From Actinomycetota bacterium (GTDB lineage: Bacteria > Actinomycetota > Acidimicrobiia > Acidimicrobiales > JAJPHD01): a stretch of 64,000 nt of DNA. A program made the position numbers and the translations under genes. The DNA is taken from NCBI GenBank assembly GCA_021325455.1, contig JAJPHD010000010.1, forward strand, positions 62,001 through 126,000, written 5' to 3'. Under the pieces are notes generated by a model that saw only the letters and a list, made by a program, of their open reading frames with translations, made no database searches and was not told the origin of the DNA. Position 1 is the first letter of the stretch; the number at the start of each line of letters is the position of its first letter. Shown here in pieces: positions 57,032 to 62,402 of this stretch.

Positions 57032-58213
57032 TCAGTCCACGCCGAGGAGGCGAGCGCCATCCGGCCCTTCCGGGGACCCGGAGAGGCTAGTCCCCGTGCG
57101 GGGGGAGATCACGTGGAGGTCGATCCCCGCTCTGCTGGTGGCCCGAAAGAGGGCCTGGACGACCGAGCCCCGCACCAGCTCCTCCCAGCGGCTCCTGTGG
57201 CTGGCCCCCACGACGATCTGGGTGACCTGGTGGTCACGGGCGAAGGCCAGGAGGGCCGAGGCGACGTCCTCACCCTCCACCTGGTGCCAGGAGCCGCCGA
57301 CGGCCGAGGTGAGCCGGCGCAGCTCCTCGACGGCGCGGCCCGAGCCGGGGCCCGAGCCGGTCACCACGTGCACCACGAACAGGTCGGCCTTGGCCCTGGC
57401 CGCCATCCGGGCCGCCCTGCGCACCACGTAGTCCCCCCCCGGCGCCCCGGCCACACCAGCCATGATCCGCTCCGTGGTCTCCCACACCTCGGAGCGGCCG
57501 TGGCTGCGGAGGAACTCGAGCAGCTCGTCCTCGGTCTCGTCGGCGACGAAGCGAAGGGCCAGCTCCCGCAGGGCGATCAGGTTCTCGGTCCGGAAGAAAT
57601 GGGCCAGGGCGTCGGGGACCTTGTCCGGTGGGTAGATGTTGCCATGCAGCATGCGGCGCCGCAGCTGGGCCGGCGAGGAGTCGATGAGCTCCAGCTGGTC
57701 CGCCCTCCGGACCACCCAGTCGGGGACCCTCTCCCTCACCGGCGCCCCGGTCATCTGCTCCACCGCATCAGCCAGGCTCTCCAGGTGCTGGATGTTGACG
57801 TTGGTGATCACGTCTATCCCGTGGTCCAACAGCACCAGGACGTCCTGCCAGCGCTTCTCGTTGCCCGACCCAGGGACGTTGGTGTGGGCCAGCTCGTCCA
57901 CCAGCGCCACCGCCGGCTGACGGTTCAGGACCGCATCGAGGTCCATCTCCTCGAACCGGGCCCCCCGATGGATGACGACCTTGCGGGGCACCACCTCCAG
58001 GTCCCGGATGAGCGAGGCGGGGTGCGCCCGCCCATGGGTCTCGACGAAGCCGATGACCACATCGGTCCCCCGCTGCCTGCGCCGCCATCCTTCGTCGAGC
58101 ATGGCCGAGGTCTTCCCCACCCCGGCCACGGCCCCCAGGTAGATCCGGAAGCGACCGGCCGGCTCGACGGCGGTCTCGGTCACCAGGTTGGCAGCAGCCG
58201 GGTCCTCGGGCAC
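57032..58213 (-). CDS. KdpD N-terminal half (sensor ATPase plus USP domain), stand-alone
   Basis: A 393-residue protein equal to the cytoplasmic N-terminal half of KdpD. The KdpD domain has a Walker A motif IYLGAVAGVGKTSAML, VVIGFVETHGR, the Walker B-like VALVDELAHTNVPGS and ITNVNIQHLESLADAV. A universal stress protein domain follows (RIMAGVAGAPGGDYVVRRAARMA, TQIVVGASHRSRWEELVRGSV). There is no membrane or kinase part; that half is divergent, 26 bp away. It presumably acts with that kinase in K+ sensing. It is co-directional with soxB. Confidence 0.92.
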   Translation of the reverse strand: MPEDPAAANLVTETAVEPAGRFRIYLGAVAGVGKTSAMLDEGWRRRQRGTDVVIGFVETHGRAHPASLIRDLEVVPRKVVIHRGARFEEMDLDAVLNRQPAVALVDELAHTNVPGSGNEKRWQDVLVLLDHGIDVITNVNIQHLESLADAVEQMTGAPVRERVPDWVVRRADQLELIDSSPAQLRRRMLHGNIYPPDKVPDALAHFFRTENLIALRELALRFVADETEDELLEFLRSHGRSEVWETTERIMAGVAGAPGGDYVVRRAARMAARAKADLFVVHVVTGSGPGSGRAVEELRRLTSAVGGSWHQVEGEDVASALLAFARDHQVTQIVVGASHRSRWEELVRGSVVQALFRATSRAGIDLHVISPRTGTSLSGSPEGPDGARLLGVD

Positions 58214-58239
58214 CCTCCCATTGTGCCCTCCTCGGTAGC

Positions 58240-59745
58240 ATGAGAGCCGTGAGGCGCCTGGGTCCGGTCCCTCCCGGCATGCGCATCTGGACCGGGGCGA
58301 TGGTGGCCATGGCCGGAGTGGCCGCCCTGAGCGGCGCCATGGTCCCCTTGCGGGCCCACCTGAGCGTGGCGACCACTGCCCTGGTCCTGGTCGTCCCCGT
58401 GGTGGCCGGCGTTGCCGTCGGAGGCCTGCCGGCAGGGGCCGTCGGGGTGGCGTGCGGCTTCCTCGCTTACGACTTCCTGTTCATCCCCCCCTACGGGACC
58501 CTTTCTGTCGGCGCCCTCCAGAACTGGGTGGCGCTCGGTGTGTACGTGGCGACCATGCTCCTCGTCTCCTGGGTGGTGGGTGGCCTCCACGCCGCCCGGG
58601 CCGTGGCCGGGGACCGGGAGAAGGAGGCGCGCCGTCTCTTCGAGATGTCCGATCTCCTGATCGCCCACCGGCCCCGGGACGAGCTGCTCAGGGCGGTGGC
58701 GGCCACGGTGCGGCAGGCCTTCGGAGCGGCTGGCGTGGCCCTCCTGCTGCCTTCGGGCGACAGGCTCGAGACGGCGGCGTCGGACGGAGAGCCCTTCCCG
58801 GCCGACCACCTGGTGGGCCTGGCCTCGGGGGGCGGCCCCCCCGTGCCCCTGTCGAGGAGGGAGGACGTGCGCACGGTGGTGCTGTCCGCCGGCGGCCACC
58901 CGGTGGGCCTTCTCAGCCTGGCCGGGGCGGGCCTGGACTCCCGCCAGGACCAGCTTCTGGTCACCTTCGCCAACCACGCCGCCCTCGCCGTGGAGAGAGC
59001 CCAGCTTCAGGACCAGGCGGTGCGGGCCGGGGTGCTGGAGGAGGTGGACCGTTGGCGCTCGGCGCTGTGGGCGTCGGTGTCCCACGACCTGCGCACGCCC
59101 CTGTTCTCCATCAAGACCGCGGTGTCGAACCTGGCCGATCCGGACCTCGACCTGGCGCCCGAGGACCGCTCCGAGCTGCTGGCCATGGTGGAGGCGGAGA
59201 CCGATCGGCTGGCCCGGCTGGTCACCGAGCTGCTGGACATGACCAGGATCGAGGCCGGCACCCTCCAGGCCCACCTCGAGGCCGTTGCCGTGCCCGACGT
59301 GGTGGAAGACGCCATCGGCCGTCTGGGGCGGCGCCAGCTGGCTGGCCGCCTCGAGGTCGAGGTGCCCGAGGACCTGCCCCTCATGACCGCTGACCCCGTC
59401 CTAACCGGCCAGGTCCTGGCCAACCTCCTGGACAACGCCGGGCAGCACACCGGGCCCTTTTCGCCGGTGCGGCTCCAGGCCCGCCGGCTCGGGGACCGGA
59501 TCGAGATGAGCGTGGCCGACACCGGGCCCGGCATAGCGCCCGAGCAGAGGGAGGCCATCTTCCAGGCCTTCCACCGGGTCAAGGGGGCAGCCTCACCTCC
59601 GGGGGGTGTGGGCCTGGGCCTGGCCATCGCCAAGGCCTTCGTGGAGGCCCAGGGCGGAAGGATCTGGGTGGCCGACCGCGAGGGGGGAGGCTCGGTCTTC
59701 ACCGTGTCCCTTCCTGTCTTCGAGCTGGCGCACAAGGTGGCCTAA
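58240..59745 (+). CDS. KdpD C-terminal half (DUF4118 membrane histidine kinase)
   Basis: A 501-residue sensor kinase equal to the C-terminal half of KdpD. Four close transmembrane helices (DUF4118; about residues 20-115, with GFLAYDFLFIPPYGTLSV) are followed by a GAF-like domain, the HisKA domain with the phosphoacceptor His282 in ASVSHDLRTPLFSIKTAV, and the ATPase domain with NLLDNAGQHT, VADTGPGIAPEQ and GGVGLGLAIAKAFVEAQGG. It lacks the KdpD/USP input half. It should phosphorylate KdpE, encoded 4 bp downstream. Confidence 0.94.
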   Translation: MRAVRRLGPVPPGMRIWTGAMVAMAGVAALSGAMVPLRAHLSVATTALVLVVPVVAGVAVGGLPAGAVGVACGFLAYDFLFIPPYGTLSVGALQNWVALGVYVATMLLVSWVVGGLHAARAVAGDREKEARRLFEMSDLLIAHRPRDELLRAVAATVRQAFGAAGVALLLPSGDRLETAASDGEPFPADHLVGLASGGGPPVPLSRREDVRTVVLSAGGHPVGLLSLAGAGLDSRQDQLLVTFANHAALAVERAQLQDQAVRAGVLEEVDRWRSALWASVSHDLRTPLFSIKTAVSNLADPDLDLAPEDRSELLAMVEAETDRLARLVTELLDMTRIEAGTLQAHLEAVAVPDVVEDAIGRLGRRQLAGRLEVEVPEDLPLMTADPVLTGQVLANLLDNAGQHTGPFSPVRLQARRLGDRIEMSVADTGPGIAPEQREAIFQAFHRVKGAASPPGGVGLGLAIAKAFVEAQGGRIWVADREGGGSVFTVSLPVFELAHKVA

Positions 59746-59749
59746 GCCC

Positions 59750-60439
59750 GTGGCCCGGCTGCTCGTCATCGACGACGAGAGGGCGGTGCTGCGCTCCCTC
59801 GCCATAGGCCTGCGAGCCAAGGGCTACGACGTCGTCACCGCCGATACCGGCGAGGCGGGCCTGTCGCAGGCCGCTCTGTGCGATCCCGACGTGGTGGTCC
59901 TGGACCTCGGCCTCCCTGACGTCGACGGGATCCAGGTCTGCCGGCTCATCCGCACCTGGAGCCAGGTTCCCATCCTCGTCCTCTCGGCCCACGGAGCCGA
60001 GCAGACCAAGGTGGAGGCTTTGGACTGCGGCGCGGACGATTTCGTCACCAAGCCCTTTGGCATGGACGAGCTCCAAGCCCGGCTGCGGGTGGCCCTCCGT
60101 CACGGCCGCCAGCGCCAGGACGAGCCGGCCGAGACCGTCCTGCGGGTGGGCCCCCTCGAGGTGGACCGGGCCCGCCGGGCCGTAGCCGTGTCCGGCCAGG
60201 CGGTCGACCTCACCCCCCGGGAGTTCGACTTCCTCGCCTATCTGGCCAGCCACGCCGGCAAGGTGGTGACCCATCGCACCCTCCTGCAGGCCGTCTGGGG
60301 TGAGGGCTACGGCAGCGAGACCCACTACCTGCGCATTTACGCCAGCCGCCTGCGCTCCAAGCTGGGAGACCCTCATGGGCGCCTCCTGCGCACCAGCCCC
60401 GGGGTCGGCTACCAGCTGGCCGAGGCGGACCCCGGTTAG
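59750..60439 (+). CDS. kdpE: KdpE response regulator (OmpR/PhoB type)
   Basis: A 229-residue regulator. The receiver has the acidic pair in LLVIDDERAVLR, the phosphorylated Asp52 in VVVLDLGLPDVDG, Ser/Thr in LVLSAHG and Lys in FVTKPFGMDELQARLRVAL. The winged helix shows VDLTPREFDFLAYLASHAGKVVTHRTLLQAVWG and ETHYLRIYASRLRSKLG. It activates kdp transcription when turgor or K+ falls. GTG 59750 begins 4 bp behind the kinase stop. TTTACG repeats just downstream are its probable sites. Confidence 0.95.
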   Translation: MARLLVIDDERAVLRSLAIGLRAKGYDVVTADTGEAGLSQAALCDPDVVVLDLGLPDVDGIQVCRLIRTWSQVPILVLSAHGAEQTKVEALDCGADDFVTKPFGMDELQARLRVALRHGRQRQDEPAETVLRVGPLEVDRARRAVAVSGQAVDLTPREFDFLAYLASHAGKVVTHRTLLQAVWGEGYGSETHYLRIYASRLRSKLGDPHGRLLRTSPGVGYQLAEADPG

Positions 60440-60462: not shown

Positions 60463-60500
60463 TTTACGGTCTCTTTACGGCGCCCGCCGCCGGGTTTACG
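60463..60500 (+). promoter_or_regulatory. KdpE-box-like direct repeats upstream of the kdp genes
   Basis: TTTACG occurs at 60463-60468, 60474-60479 and 60495-60500. The first two are 11 bp apart (TTTACG-N5-TTTACG), the third 21 bp further. The E. coli kdp operator is TTTATA-N5-TTTACA, the same half-sites and spacing, and GC-rich sequence follows in both. TTGACG at 60506-60511 could be a -35 element. Confidence 0.65.
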
Positions 60501-60533
60501 CCCTGTTGACGGCCCGGCGACCACCGTGGGGGC

Positions 60534-60617
60534 ATGGCTGATCTTTGGGCTGTGGTCGGCATCATCGCCTTCTTCGCCGCCATGGTGGCCTTTGCCGTCT
60601 CCCTGGAGCACCTGTGA
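60534..60617 (+). CDS. 27-residue single-pass membrane micro-protein before kdpF
   Basis: ATG 60534 opens a 27-residue ORF, MADLWAVVGIIAFFAAMVAF continuing AVSLEHL, with one hydrophobic helix of about 19 residues and an acidic then basic end. GTGGGGG lies just upstream. Its TGA overlaps the GTG of kdpF. It is not KdpF, which follows, but its size and place suggest a second small Kdp-associated subunit or a coupling ORF. Too short for standard gene finding. Confidence 0.6.
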   Translation: MADLWAVVGIIAFFAAMVAFAVSLEHL

Positions 60618-60703
60618 GCCCGCCCGACGCTGTCCTCCTGGCCCTGGCCGTGTGCCTCTTCGTGTACGTCGGGGTGGCCCTCGTGAAGCCCGAGCGGTTC
60701 TGA
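60614..60703 (+). CDS. kdpF: K+-transporting ATPase small subunit KdpF
   Basis: A 29-residue membrane peptide, MSPPDAVLLALAVCLFVYVG followed by VALVKPERF. The single helix and the ending A-L-x-K/R-P-E-x-F are the KdpF signature; KdpF stabilises the KdpABC complex at the KdpA interface. The GTG overlaps the previous micro-ORF stop, and kdpA starts 4 bp after its TGA. Confidence 0.9.
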   Translation: MSPPDAVLLALAVCLFVYVGVALVKPERF

Positions 60704-60707
60704 GGCC

Positions 60708-62402
60708 ATGGGCTACTTCCTCACCCTGGTGGTGATGGTGGCGGTCCTGGCCGTGGTATGGAGACTGCTCGGGGCCTACATGGTGGCGGTGTACGACGGT
60801 CGCACCCGCTGGCTGGCATTCGTCGAGCGGCCCCTCTACCGGCTCCTCGGGACCGATCCCAAGGTGGAGCAGACCTGGCGCCGCTATGCCGTCTCCCTGA
60901 TCGCCTTCTCCCTGGTCTCGGCCCTGCTCACCTACGCCATCCTCCGACTCCAGGGCCACCTCCCCCTCAACCCCGACCATCTGCACGGTGTCCCCCCGGC
61001 GCTGTCGTTCAACACCGCGGTGTCCTTCCTCACCAACACCAACTGGCAGAACTACCCGGGGGAGACGACCATGTCCTACCTCTCCCAGATGACGGCCCTG
61101 GCCGTCCAGAACTTCGTGAGCGCCTCGGTCGGCATGGCCGTGGCCGTGGCCCTCATCCGGGGCCTGTCCCGCAAGGGTTCCTCCACGATCGGCAACTTCT
61201 GGGTGGACCTCACCCGGGGGGTCCTCTACATCCTGCTGCCCATCTCCTTCTTGATGGCGATCGTGTTCGTCTCCCAGGGAGCGGTACAGACCCTGGCCGG
61301 CCCCGCCCACATCCATGACGCCCTGAACGGCGTGTCCCAGACCATACCGAGGGGGCCGGTCGCCTCCCAGGAGGTCATCAAGCAGCTGGGCACCAACGGC
61401 GGGGGGTTCTTCAACGCCAACGCCGCTCACCCCTTCGAGAACCCCGACGGCCTGACCAACCTGTTGGAGATCCTCCTCATCCTCTCCATACCCGTGGCCC
61501 TCACCTACACCTTCGGTCGCATGGTGGGCAGCGTGCGCCAGGGCGTGGCCGTTCTGGCTGCCATGACTCTGCTCTTCGGGGTGTGGCTGGGATCCACCTC
61601 CGTGGCCGAGCATGCCCCCAACCCGGCCGTGGCCGCCGCCGGTCTTGCCCACCAGCCCGGCGGCAACATGGTCGGCAAGGAGGCACGCTTCGGCGACACG
61701 TCATCGGCCTTGTTCAACGTGGTGTCCACCCAGACCTCGACCGGCTCGGTCGACTCCTCCATGGACTCCTACAACCCCCTGGGCGGGATGGGCACCATGA
61801 CGGGCATGATGCTGGGGGAGGTCTCGCCCGGAGGGGTGGGGAGCGGACTCTACACCATGCTGTGCTTCGCCCTCCTGGCGGTGTTCATAGGGGGGCTCAT
61901 GGTGGGCCGGACGCCGGAGTACCTCGGCAAGAAGATCCAGGCCCGGGAGGTCAAGCTGGCGGCCATTGCCATCCTGGTGATGCCCGTGACGGTGCTGGTG
62001 CTGGCCGGCCTGGCGTCTGTCCTGCCCGCCGGGACGTCACCCACGTTGAACGCCGGTCCCCATGGGTTCTCCGAGATCCTCTACGCCTTCACGTCCCAGG
62101 CCAACAACAACGGCTCGGCTTTCGCCGGGTTGTCCAGCAACACCGTCTTCTACAACGTCTTGGGCGGGTTGGCGATGCTCGTCGGACGGTTCGTGATCAT
62201 CATCCCCGTGCTGGCCCTGGCCGGGGCTCTGGCCGCCAAGGAGATGGTGCCGGCCGGGGCGGGCACCTTCCGGACCGACACCGCCCTCTTTGCCGGGCTC
62301 CTCGTGGCCGTCGTGCTCATCGTCGGCGGGCTCACCTTCTTCCCGGCCGTGTCCCTGGGCCCGGTGGTCGAGGCCCTGTCCCATGGGAGGTTCTTCGGTT
62401 GA
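60708..62402 (+). CDS. kdpA: K+-transporting ATPase subunit KdpA
   Basis: A 564-residue potassium-binding channel-like subunit of the KdpFABC P-type pump. Four repeated pore segments are visible: [58 protein letters not shown] (here DSYNPLGG) and [23 protein letters not shown], all matching the KdpA selectivity filter regions. About ten membrane helices. Its TGA overlaps the TTG of kdpB. Regulated by the split KdpD and KdpE upstream. Confidence 0.97.

What the first reader, a model, noticed from the sequence alone, without database searches (positions are those of the whole stretch)
57032..59745. KdpD split into two divergently transcribed genes
The KdpD-domain plus USP half (57032-58213, minus) and the DUF4118-GAF-HisKA-HATPase half (58240-59745, plus) are separate full-length proteins in opposite directions, 26 bp apart. 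In most bacteria KdpD is one polypeptide in which the cytoplasmic N-terminal half tunes the kinase. Here the ratio of sensor to kinase can vary and the sensor half is free to act on other targets. Both halves keep their motifs (Walker A, His282), so this is not decay.
Basis: partly seen in the sequence, partly recalled or inferred. Interest (0 to 1): 0.7.

Follow-up and report, generated by a model that had tools for sequence, protein, structure and literature searches.

The report
Split KdpD, two kinases head-to-head
In this actinobacterium the regulator of the Kdp potassium pump is made as two proteins instead of one, a small kinase predicted to shut the pump off and a membrane kinase predicted to turn its genes on, from genes lying head to head; the split itself is already known from other bacteria, so this is a well-supported new case rather than a discovery.

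Summary
A KdpD+Usp protein (57032-58213, minus) and a DUF4118-(weak GAF)-HisKA-HATPase protein (58240-59745, plus) are intact and head to head; kdpE, kdpF, kdpA, kdpB and kdpC follow the second. It is neither an artefact nor a recent break: the same divergent pair occurs in eight other actinobacterial loci, one in a single-contig genome, and both halves and KdpA form clades apart from the fused-KdpD systems of the same order. The kinase half does not nest among actinobacterial fused KdpDs, which argues against local fission of a resident gene. The split itself is published: Silberberg et al. 2024 show that the KdpD domain is an atypical serine kinase phosphorylating KdpB Ser162, and name KdpD/Usp plus TM/GAF/DHpCA as the commonest two-chain combination; Deinococcus has a two-chain system. 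So the N-terminal protein is best read as a pump-inhibiting serine kinase, not a 'sensor half'. Its catalytic motifs, the KdpB target motif and a diadenylate cyclase gene are present. What is added here: the head-to-head layout (published cases keep the serine kinase downstream of the pump), putative KdpE boxes only before kdpF, and hybrid loci. New member of a known kind; modest interest.

The parts
57032..58213 (-). kdpD-N: KdpD (atypical serine kinase) domain plus Usp domain, 393 aa
   Evidence: ORF; PF02702 and PF00582; Walker A, Walker B D106/E107, R187 kept; fold matches 2r8r and 7ji4
58214..58239 (.). 26-bp divergent junction; CACAAT at 58225-58220 (minus), six bases before the kdpD-N start, is repeated in L040 and L054; TAGCAT at 58236-58241 (plus) is a possible -10 for a kinase start at GTG 58249
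   Evidence: comparison of junctions; promoter function is inference, the sigma-70 scan found none
58240..59745 (+). membrane histidine kinase, C-terminal half of KdpD: DUF4118, weak GAF, HisKA (His282), HATPase_c, 501 aa
59750..60439 (+). kdpE, OmpR-type response regulator
   Evidence: best NCBIfam match KdpE, 209 bits, below its cut-off of 325; Response_reg and Trans_reg_C
60463..60478 (+). putative KdpE box 1, TTTACGGTCTCTTTAC
   Evidence: only two matches in the window, none expected; family of sites near kdpA starts
60495..60510 (+). putative KdpE box 2, TTTACGCCCTGTTGAC
60534..60617 (+). 27-aa transmembrane ORF whose stop overlaps the kdpF start
60614..60703 (+). kdpF, 29 aa
   Evidence: PF09604 above cut-off; coordinates
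60708..62402 (+). kdpA
   Evidence: TIGR00680, 722 bits
62399..64000 (+). kdpB, runs past the window end; start read by hand as TTG overlapping the kdpA stop; keeps the ITGESAPV motif targeted by KdpD in E. coli; kdpC follows at L043:12017-12547

Best explanation
A two-chain KdpD of an old actinobacterial lineage of Kdp systems. The membrane protein (DUF4118-GAF-HisKA-HATPase) is the K+-responsive histidine kinase/phosphatase that works through KdpE, probably on the boxes in front of kdpF, to switch on kdpFABC. The KdpD+Usp protein is a stand-alone atypical serine kinase that, when K+ is plentiful, phosphorylates the TGES serine of KdpB and stops the pump; its Usp domain carries the control input, perhaps c-di-AMP. 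Shown here: architecture, motifs, conservation, lineage, repeat sites, presence of the target motif and of a diadenylate cyclase gene. Inferred from work on E. coli and Deinococcus geothermalis: both enzyme activities, the target and the ligand.
For: Domain content. Walker A, D106/E107 and R187 kept; KdpB ITGESAPV kept. Kinase H, N and G boxes kept. In E. coli the isolated KdpD domain phosphorylates KdpB Ser162, and KdpD/Usp plus TM/GAF/DHpCA is the commonest published two-chain combination (PMC11018627). The pair is conserved across genera and forms its own clade for both halves and for KdpA. Diadenylate cyclase domain in the genome; nearest solved fold of the Usp domain is KdpD Usp with c-di-AMP, 7ji4. 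KdpE-box-like repeats before kdpF only.
Against: The Trp of the adenine-binding W39/R190 pair is Ser here and F, Y, C or V in most relatives. The S. aureus c-di-AMP motif SXS-X20-FTAXY is absent. Cyclase presence does not track the split: 5 of 7 split and 6 of 10 fused genomes have one. No activity was measured.
Confidence: 0.75

Rival explanations
2. A recent break of a fused kdpD in this genome, by inversion of its 5' half, or an assembly inversion.
For: In L036 the order kdpA-B-C, inverted kdpD-N, kinase, kdpE looks like kdpABCDE with the 5' half of kdpD flipped; fused kdpD exists in the same order.
Against: Same divergent pair in eight other loci, one in a single-contig genome, G014. The split kinase is separated 100/100 from all fused C halves, and actinobacterial fused ones form their own clade 100/99; the KdpD-N clade is 100/99. 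Layouts differ between loci.
Confidence: 0.03

Closest known systems
Two-chain KdpD: KdpD/Usp serine kinase plus TM/GAF/DHpCA histidine kinase (Silberberg et al. 2024, PMC11018627)
   Same: Same domain content of both chains, same catalytic motifs, KdpE present.
   Different: There the serine-kinase gene is described as kept downstream of the pump with the kinase elsewhere; here it is divergent from the kinase and outside the pump operon.
Deinococcus radiodurans kdp locus, kdpD-N (DR_B0088), kinase (DR_B0082), regulator (DR_B0081) (Dani et al. 2017, PMC5716572)
   Same: KdpD/Usp protein and kinase-regulator pair as separate genes in opposite orientation.
   Different: kdpD-N is last in the kdpBAC operon; its kinase is annotated as a HAMP-type kinase; its KdpD-N and KdpA fall outside the actinobacterial split clades.
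One-chain KdpD of E. coli and most actinobacteria
   Same: The two proteins together cover the same model, 7-360 and 424-882 of 895.
   Different: Two genes on opposite strands; separate clades for both halves.
NCBIfam NF038185, KdpD-like non-kinase potassium sensor
   Same: Best NCBIfam match of kdpD-N over nearly its whole length, 369.7 bits.
   Different: Below the curated cut-off of 550; 'non-kinase' refers to the missing histidine kinase and does not take the serine-kinase activity into account.

Membership tests
KdpD atypical serine kinase (KdpD domain) | PF02702 over its curated cut-off | tested here: met
   299.5 bits against 26.1
KdpD atypical serine kinase (KdpD domain) | Walker A (G36 K37 T38 in E. 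coli) and Walker B D109/E110 | tested here: met
   GKT and D106/E107 aligned with E. coli KdpD
KdpD atypical serine kinase (KdpD domain) | W39/R190 adenine pair | tested here: inconclusive
   Arg kept, Trp is Ser; most relatives, fused ones included, also lack Trp
KdpD atypical serine kinase (KdpD domain) | Phosphorylates KdpB at the TGES serine | not testable with these tools
   Target motif ITGESAPV is present in KdpB; activity needs an assay
c-di-AMP-controlled KdpD | SXS-X20-FTAXY motif of the S. aureus type Usp domain | tested here: not met
   Absent, as also in D. radiodurans
c-di-AMP-controlled KdpD | Diadenylate cyclase in the genome | tested here: met
   PF02457, E 6.5e-25, contig C17
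c-di-AMP-controlled KdpD | c-di-AMP binds and stimulates the serine kinase | not testable with these tools
   Fold match to 7ji4 is suggestive only
KdpD-type histidine kinase chain | DUF4118 membrane part with HisKA and HATPase_c | tested here: met
   All three over cut-off; best NCBIfam match is KdpD, 209.7 bits, over 424-882
KdpD-type histidine kinase chain | GAF domain between membrane part and HisKA | tested here: inconclusive
   Below cut-off in this protein, found in 9 of 11 relatives; GAF-like block in the model
KdpD-type histidine kinase chain | Over the KdpD equivalog cut-off of NCBIfam | tested here: not met
   Neither half alone can reach the full-length cut-off of 1123
Published two-chain KdpD with the serine kinase in the pump operon | kdpD-N downstream of kdpABC | tested here: not met
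   kdpD-N is divergent from kinase-kdpE-kdpFABC; L058 and L059 of the same clade do have it downstream of kdpC
NF038185 KdpD-like non-kinase potassium sensor | Score over the curated cut-off of 550 | tested here: not met
   369.7 bits

The most novel reading that the evidence does not exclude
The head-to-head junction is a conserved regulatory device: overlapping, leaderless divergent promoters couple or oppose expression of the pump-inhibiting serine kinase and the pump-inducing histidine kinase, outside KdpE control, in place of the read-through expression proposed for other two-chain systems.
Probability: 0.2. Interest if true: 0.45.

Novelty: new member of a known kind. Interest (0 to 1): 0.3.

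Why it matters
It extends two-chain KdpD to an actinobacterial lineage that coexists with fused-KdpD systems in the same order, which gives a clean comparison of the two designs. The two kinase activities are naturally separated, so pump inhibition and gene control could be tested apart. The layout is an exception to the suggestion that the serine kinase is kept downstream of the pump for read-through expression.

Tried and rejected
Restricting the relatives search to the family gave only the window's own genome, so the class was used. A viral-contig search found no relative. Centring a genome search on the Chloroflexota locus L124 is not possible, so Chloroflexota are represented by one sequence. 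Recent fission and assembly error were rejected on the trees and on the single-contig genome G014. A simple tie between split KdpD and a diadenylate cyclase was not found. The sigma-70 promoter scan found nothing at the junction. Literature searches for a described actinobacterial split or for the ORF before kdpF gave nothing direct. Searches failed on input format.

Full report
What is there. The window holds a KdpD+Usp protein on the minus strand (57032-58213, 393 aa) and, 26 bp away on the plus strand, a membrane histidine kinase (58240-59745, 501 aa), then kdpE (59750-60439), a 27-aa ORF (60534-60617), kdpF (60614-60703), kdpA (60708-62402), kdpB and kdpC. The first protein has PF02702 and Usp only; the second has DUF4118, HisKA and HATPase_c, with GAF below cut-off but found in 9 of 11 relatives. 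The model of the second shows N-terminal helices fit for the membrane, a GAF-like block, DHp and CA (pLDDT 79, pTM 0.44, so the relative placement of domains is not reliable). Against the full-length KdpD model the two proteins match positions 7-360 and 424-882.

It is conserved. Of 247 genomes sampled from the class, 49 have PF02702 over its cut-off. By my reading, seven of them, from seven genera and all in the window's order, carry the split type: the window's genome, G014, G059, G063, G173, G214 and G242. In six of the seven the KdpD and DUF4118 genes are divergent neighbours; in G059 they lie on different contigs. Among named public assemblies of Actinomycetota, L054, L056 and L060 show the same divergent pair, L057 has the two genes in tandem, and L058 has kdpE-kinase divergent from kdpABC-kdpD-N. 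So 9 of 11 loci that hold both genes are head to head, while the pump genes lie in different places around them. Start-to-start gaps are about 26 bp (window), 18 (G014), 20 (G063), 33 (G173), 101 (L054), 177 (G242) and 492 (G214). G014 is one contig, so the layout is not an assembly effect there.

It is an old lineage. In the KdpD-domain tree sixteen actinobacterial split proteins form one clade (100/99) apart from fused proteins of the same order. In the kinase-half tree thirteen split kinases are separated from 25 fused C halves with 100/100, and the 22 actinobacterial fused ones are a clade of their own (100/99), so the split kinase did not come from a resident actinobacterial fused KdpD. 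KdpA gives the same grouping (quick method). The trees are unrooted, so they do not say whether separate chains or the fusion came first; Silberberg et al. argue for later fusion.

How it most likely works. Silberberg et al. 2024 (PMC11018627) showed that the KdpD domain is an atypical serine kinase: Walker A, Walker B D109/E110 and the W39/R190 pair are needed, the isolated domain phosphorylates KdpB Ser162, and this stops the pump at high K+. They report that some species have the two activities on separate chains, most often KdpD/Usp plus TM/GAF/DHpCA, which is this architecture. A short Deinococcus geothermalis KdpD was stimulated by c-di-AMP and not by K+. In the window, Walker A, D106/E107 and R187 are kept while the Trp position is Ser (F, Y, C or V in most relatives); the KdpB target motif ITGESAPV is kept; and the genome has a diadenylate cyclase domain. 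The Usp domain's nearest solved fold is the KdpD Usp-c-di-AMP complex 7ji4, but the S. aureus SXS-X20-FTAXY motif (PMC4686210) is missing, as it is in D. radiodurans, so the ligand is open. The kinase keeps its H, N and G boxes and should serve KdpE.

Regulation. Two direct repeats, TTTACGGTCTCTTTAC and TTTACGCCCTGTTGAC, lie upstream of kdpF and nowhere else in the window. Their 11-base period equals that of the E. coli KdpE half-sites TTTATA and TTTACA with a 5-bp spacer (PMC3264566). TTNAC-N6-TTNAC occurs near the kdpA start in 20 of 65 loci, on either strand, and at 0 of 140 kdpB and kdpE starts of the non-split loci. In the split loci it is absent from all 13 kdpD-N starts and 12 kdpE starts; the single kinase-start hit (L038) and kdpB-start hit (L040) are those loci's kdpF sites seen from over-long ORFs. 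So KdpE probably drives the pump genes and not the junction. At the junction, CACAAT six bases before the kdpD-N start is repeated in L040 and L054, which would fit leaderless transcription and supports GTG 58213; TAGCAT on the other strand would fit a kinase start at GTG 58249. These promoter readings are inference.

Novelty. The split is published, including in Deinococcus radiodurans (PMC5716572). What this adds is an actinobacterial lineage, the head-to-head layout (published cases keep the serine kinase downstream of the pump), and loci such as L067 where a fused KdpD with a degenerate ATPase region sits beside an intact separate kinase. I rate it a new member of a known kind, of modest interest.

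Noticed in passing
window 60534-60617 (+): A 27-aa transmembrane ORF (MADLWAVVGIIAFFAAMVAFAVSLEHL) whose stop overlaps the kdpF start by 4 bases. A similar small ORF precedes kdpF in most actinobacterial kdp loci examined and in the Chloroflexota locus L124; it has no Pfam match and only a weak chance-level NCBIfam match. Possibly an undescribed small Kdp subunit or leader peptide.
   Followed up: partly
own genome contig C16: L002:1429-2604 (L047:8342-9517): A second KdpD+Usp protein directly after a gene that looks like a ClC-type chloride channel with CBS-like tail (identified by eye); its Walker B glutamate is Asn (VDNLAH), so it may be catalytically dead.
   Followed up: partly
L067:7992-10487 and 987-2570; L114:3083-5611: Hybrid loci: L067 has a split-type separate kinase plus a fused KdpD whose HATPase region is degenerate; L114's fused KdpD shows the same degeneration.
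   Followed up: partly
L040:10950-11645: A further short KdpD-like protein of 231 aa, KdpD domain without Usp, between kdpE and kdpC in G242, besides the full-length kdpD-N.
   Followed up: no
L053:4280-5725 and L055:7797-9089: KdpD+Usp genes of the split clade with no other kdp gene detected in the fetched flanks.
   Followed up: no
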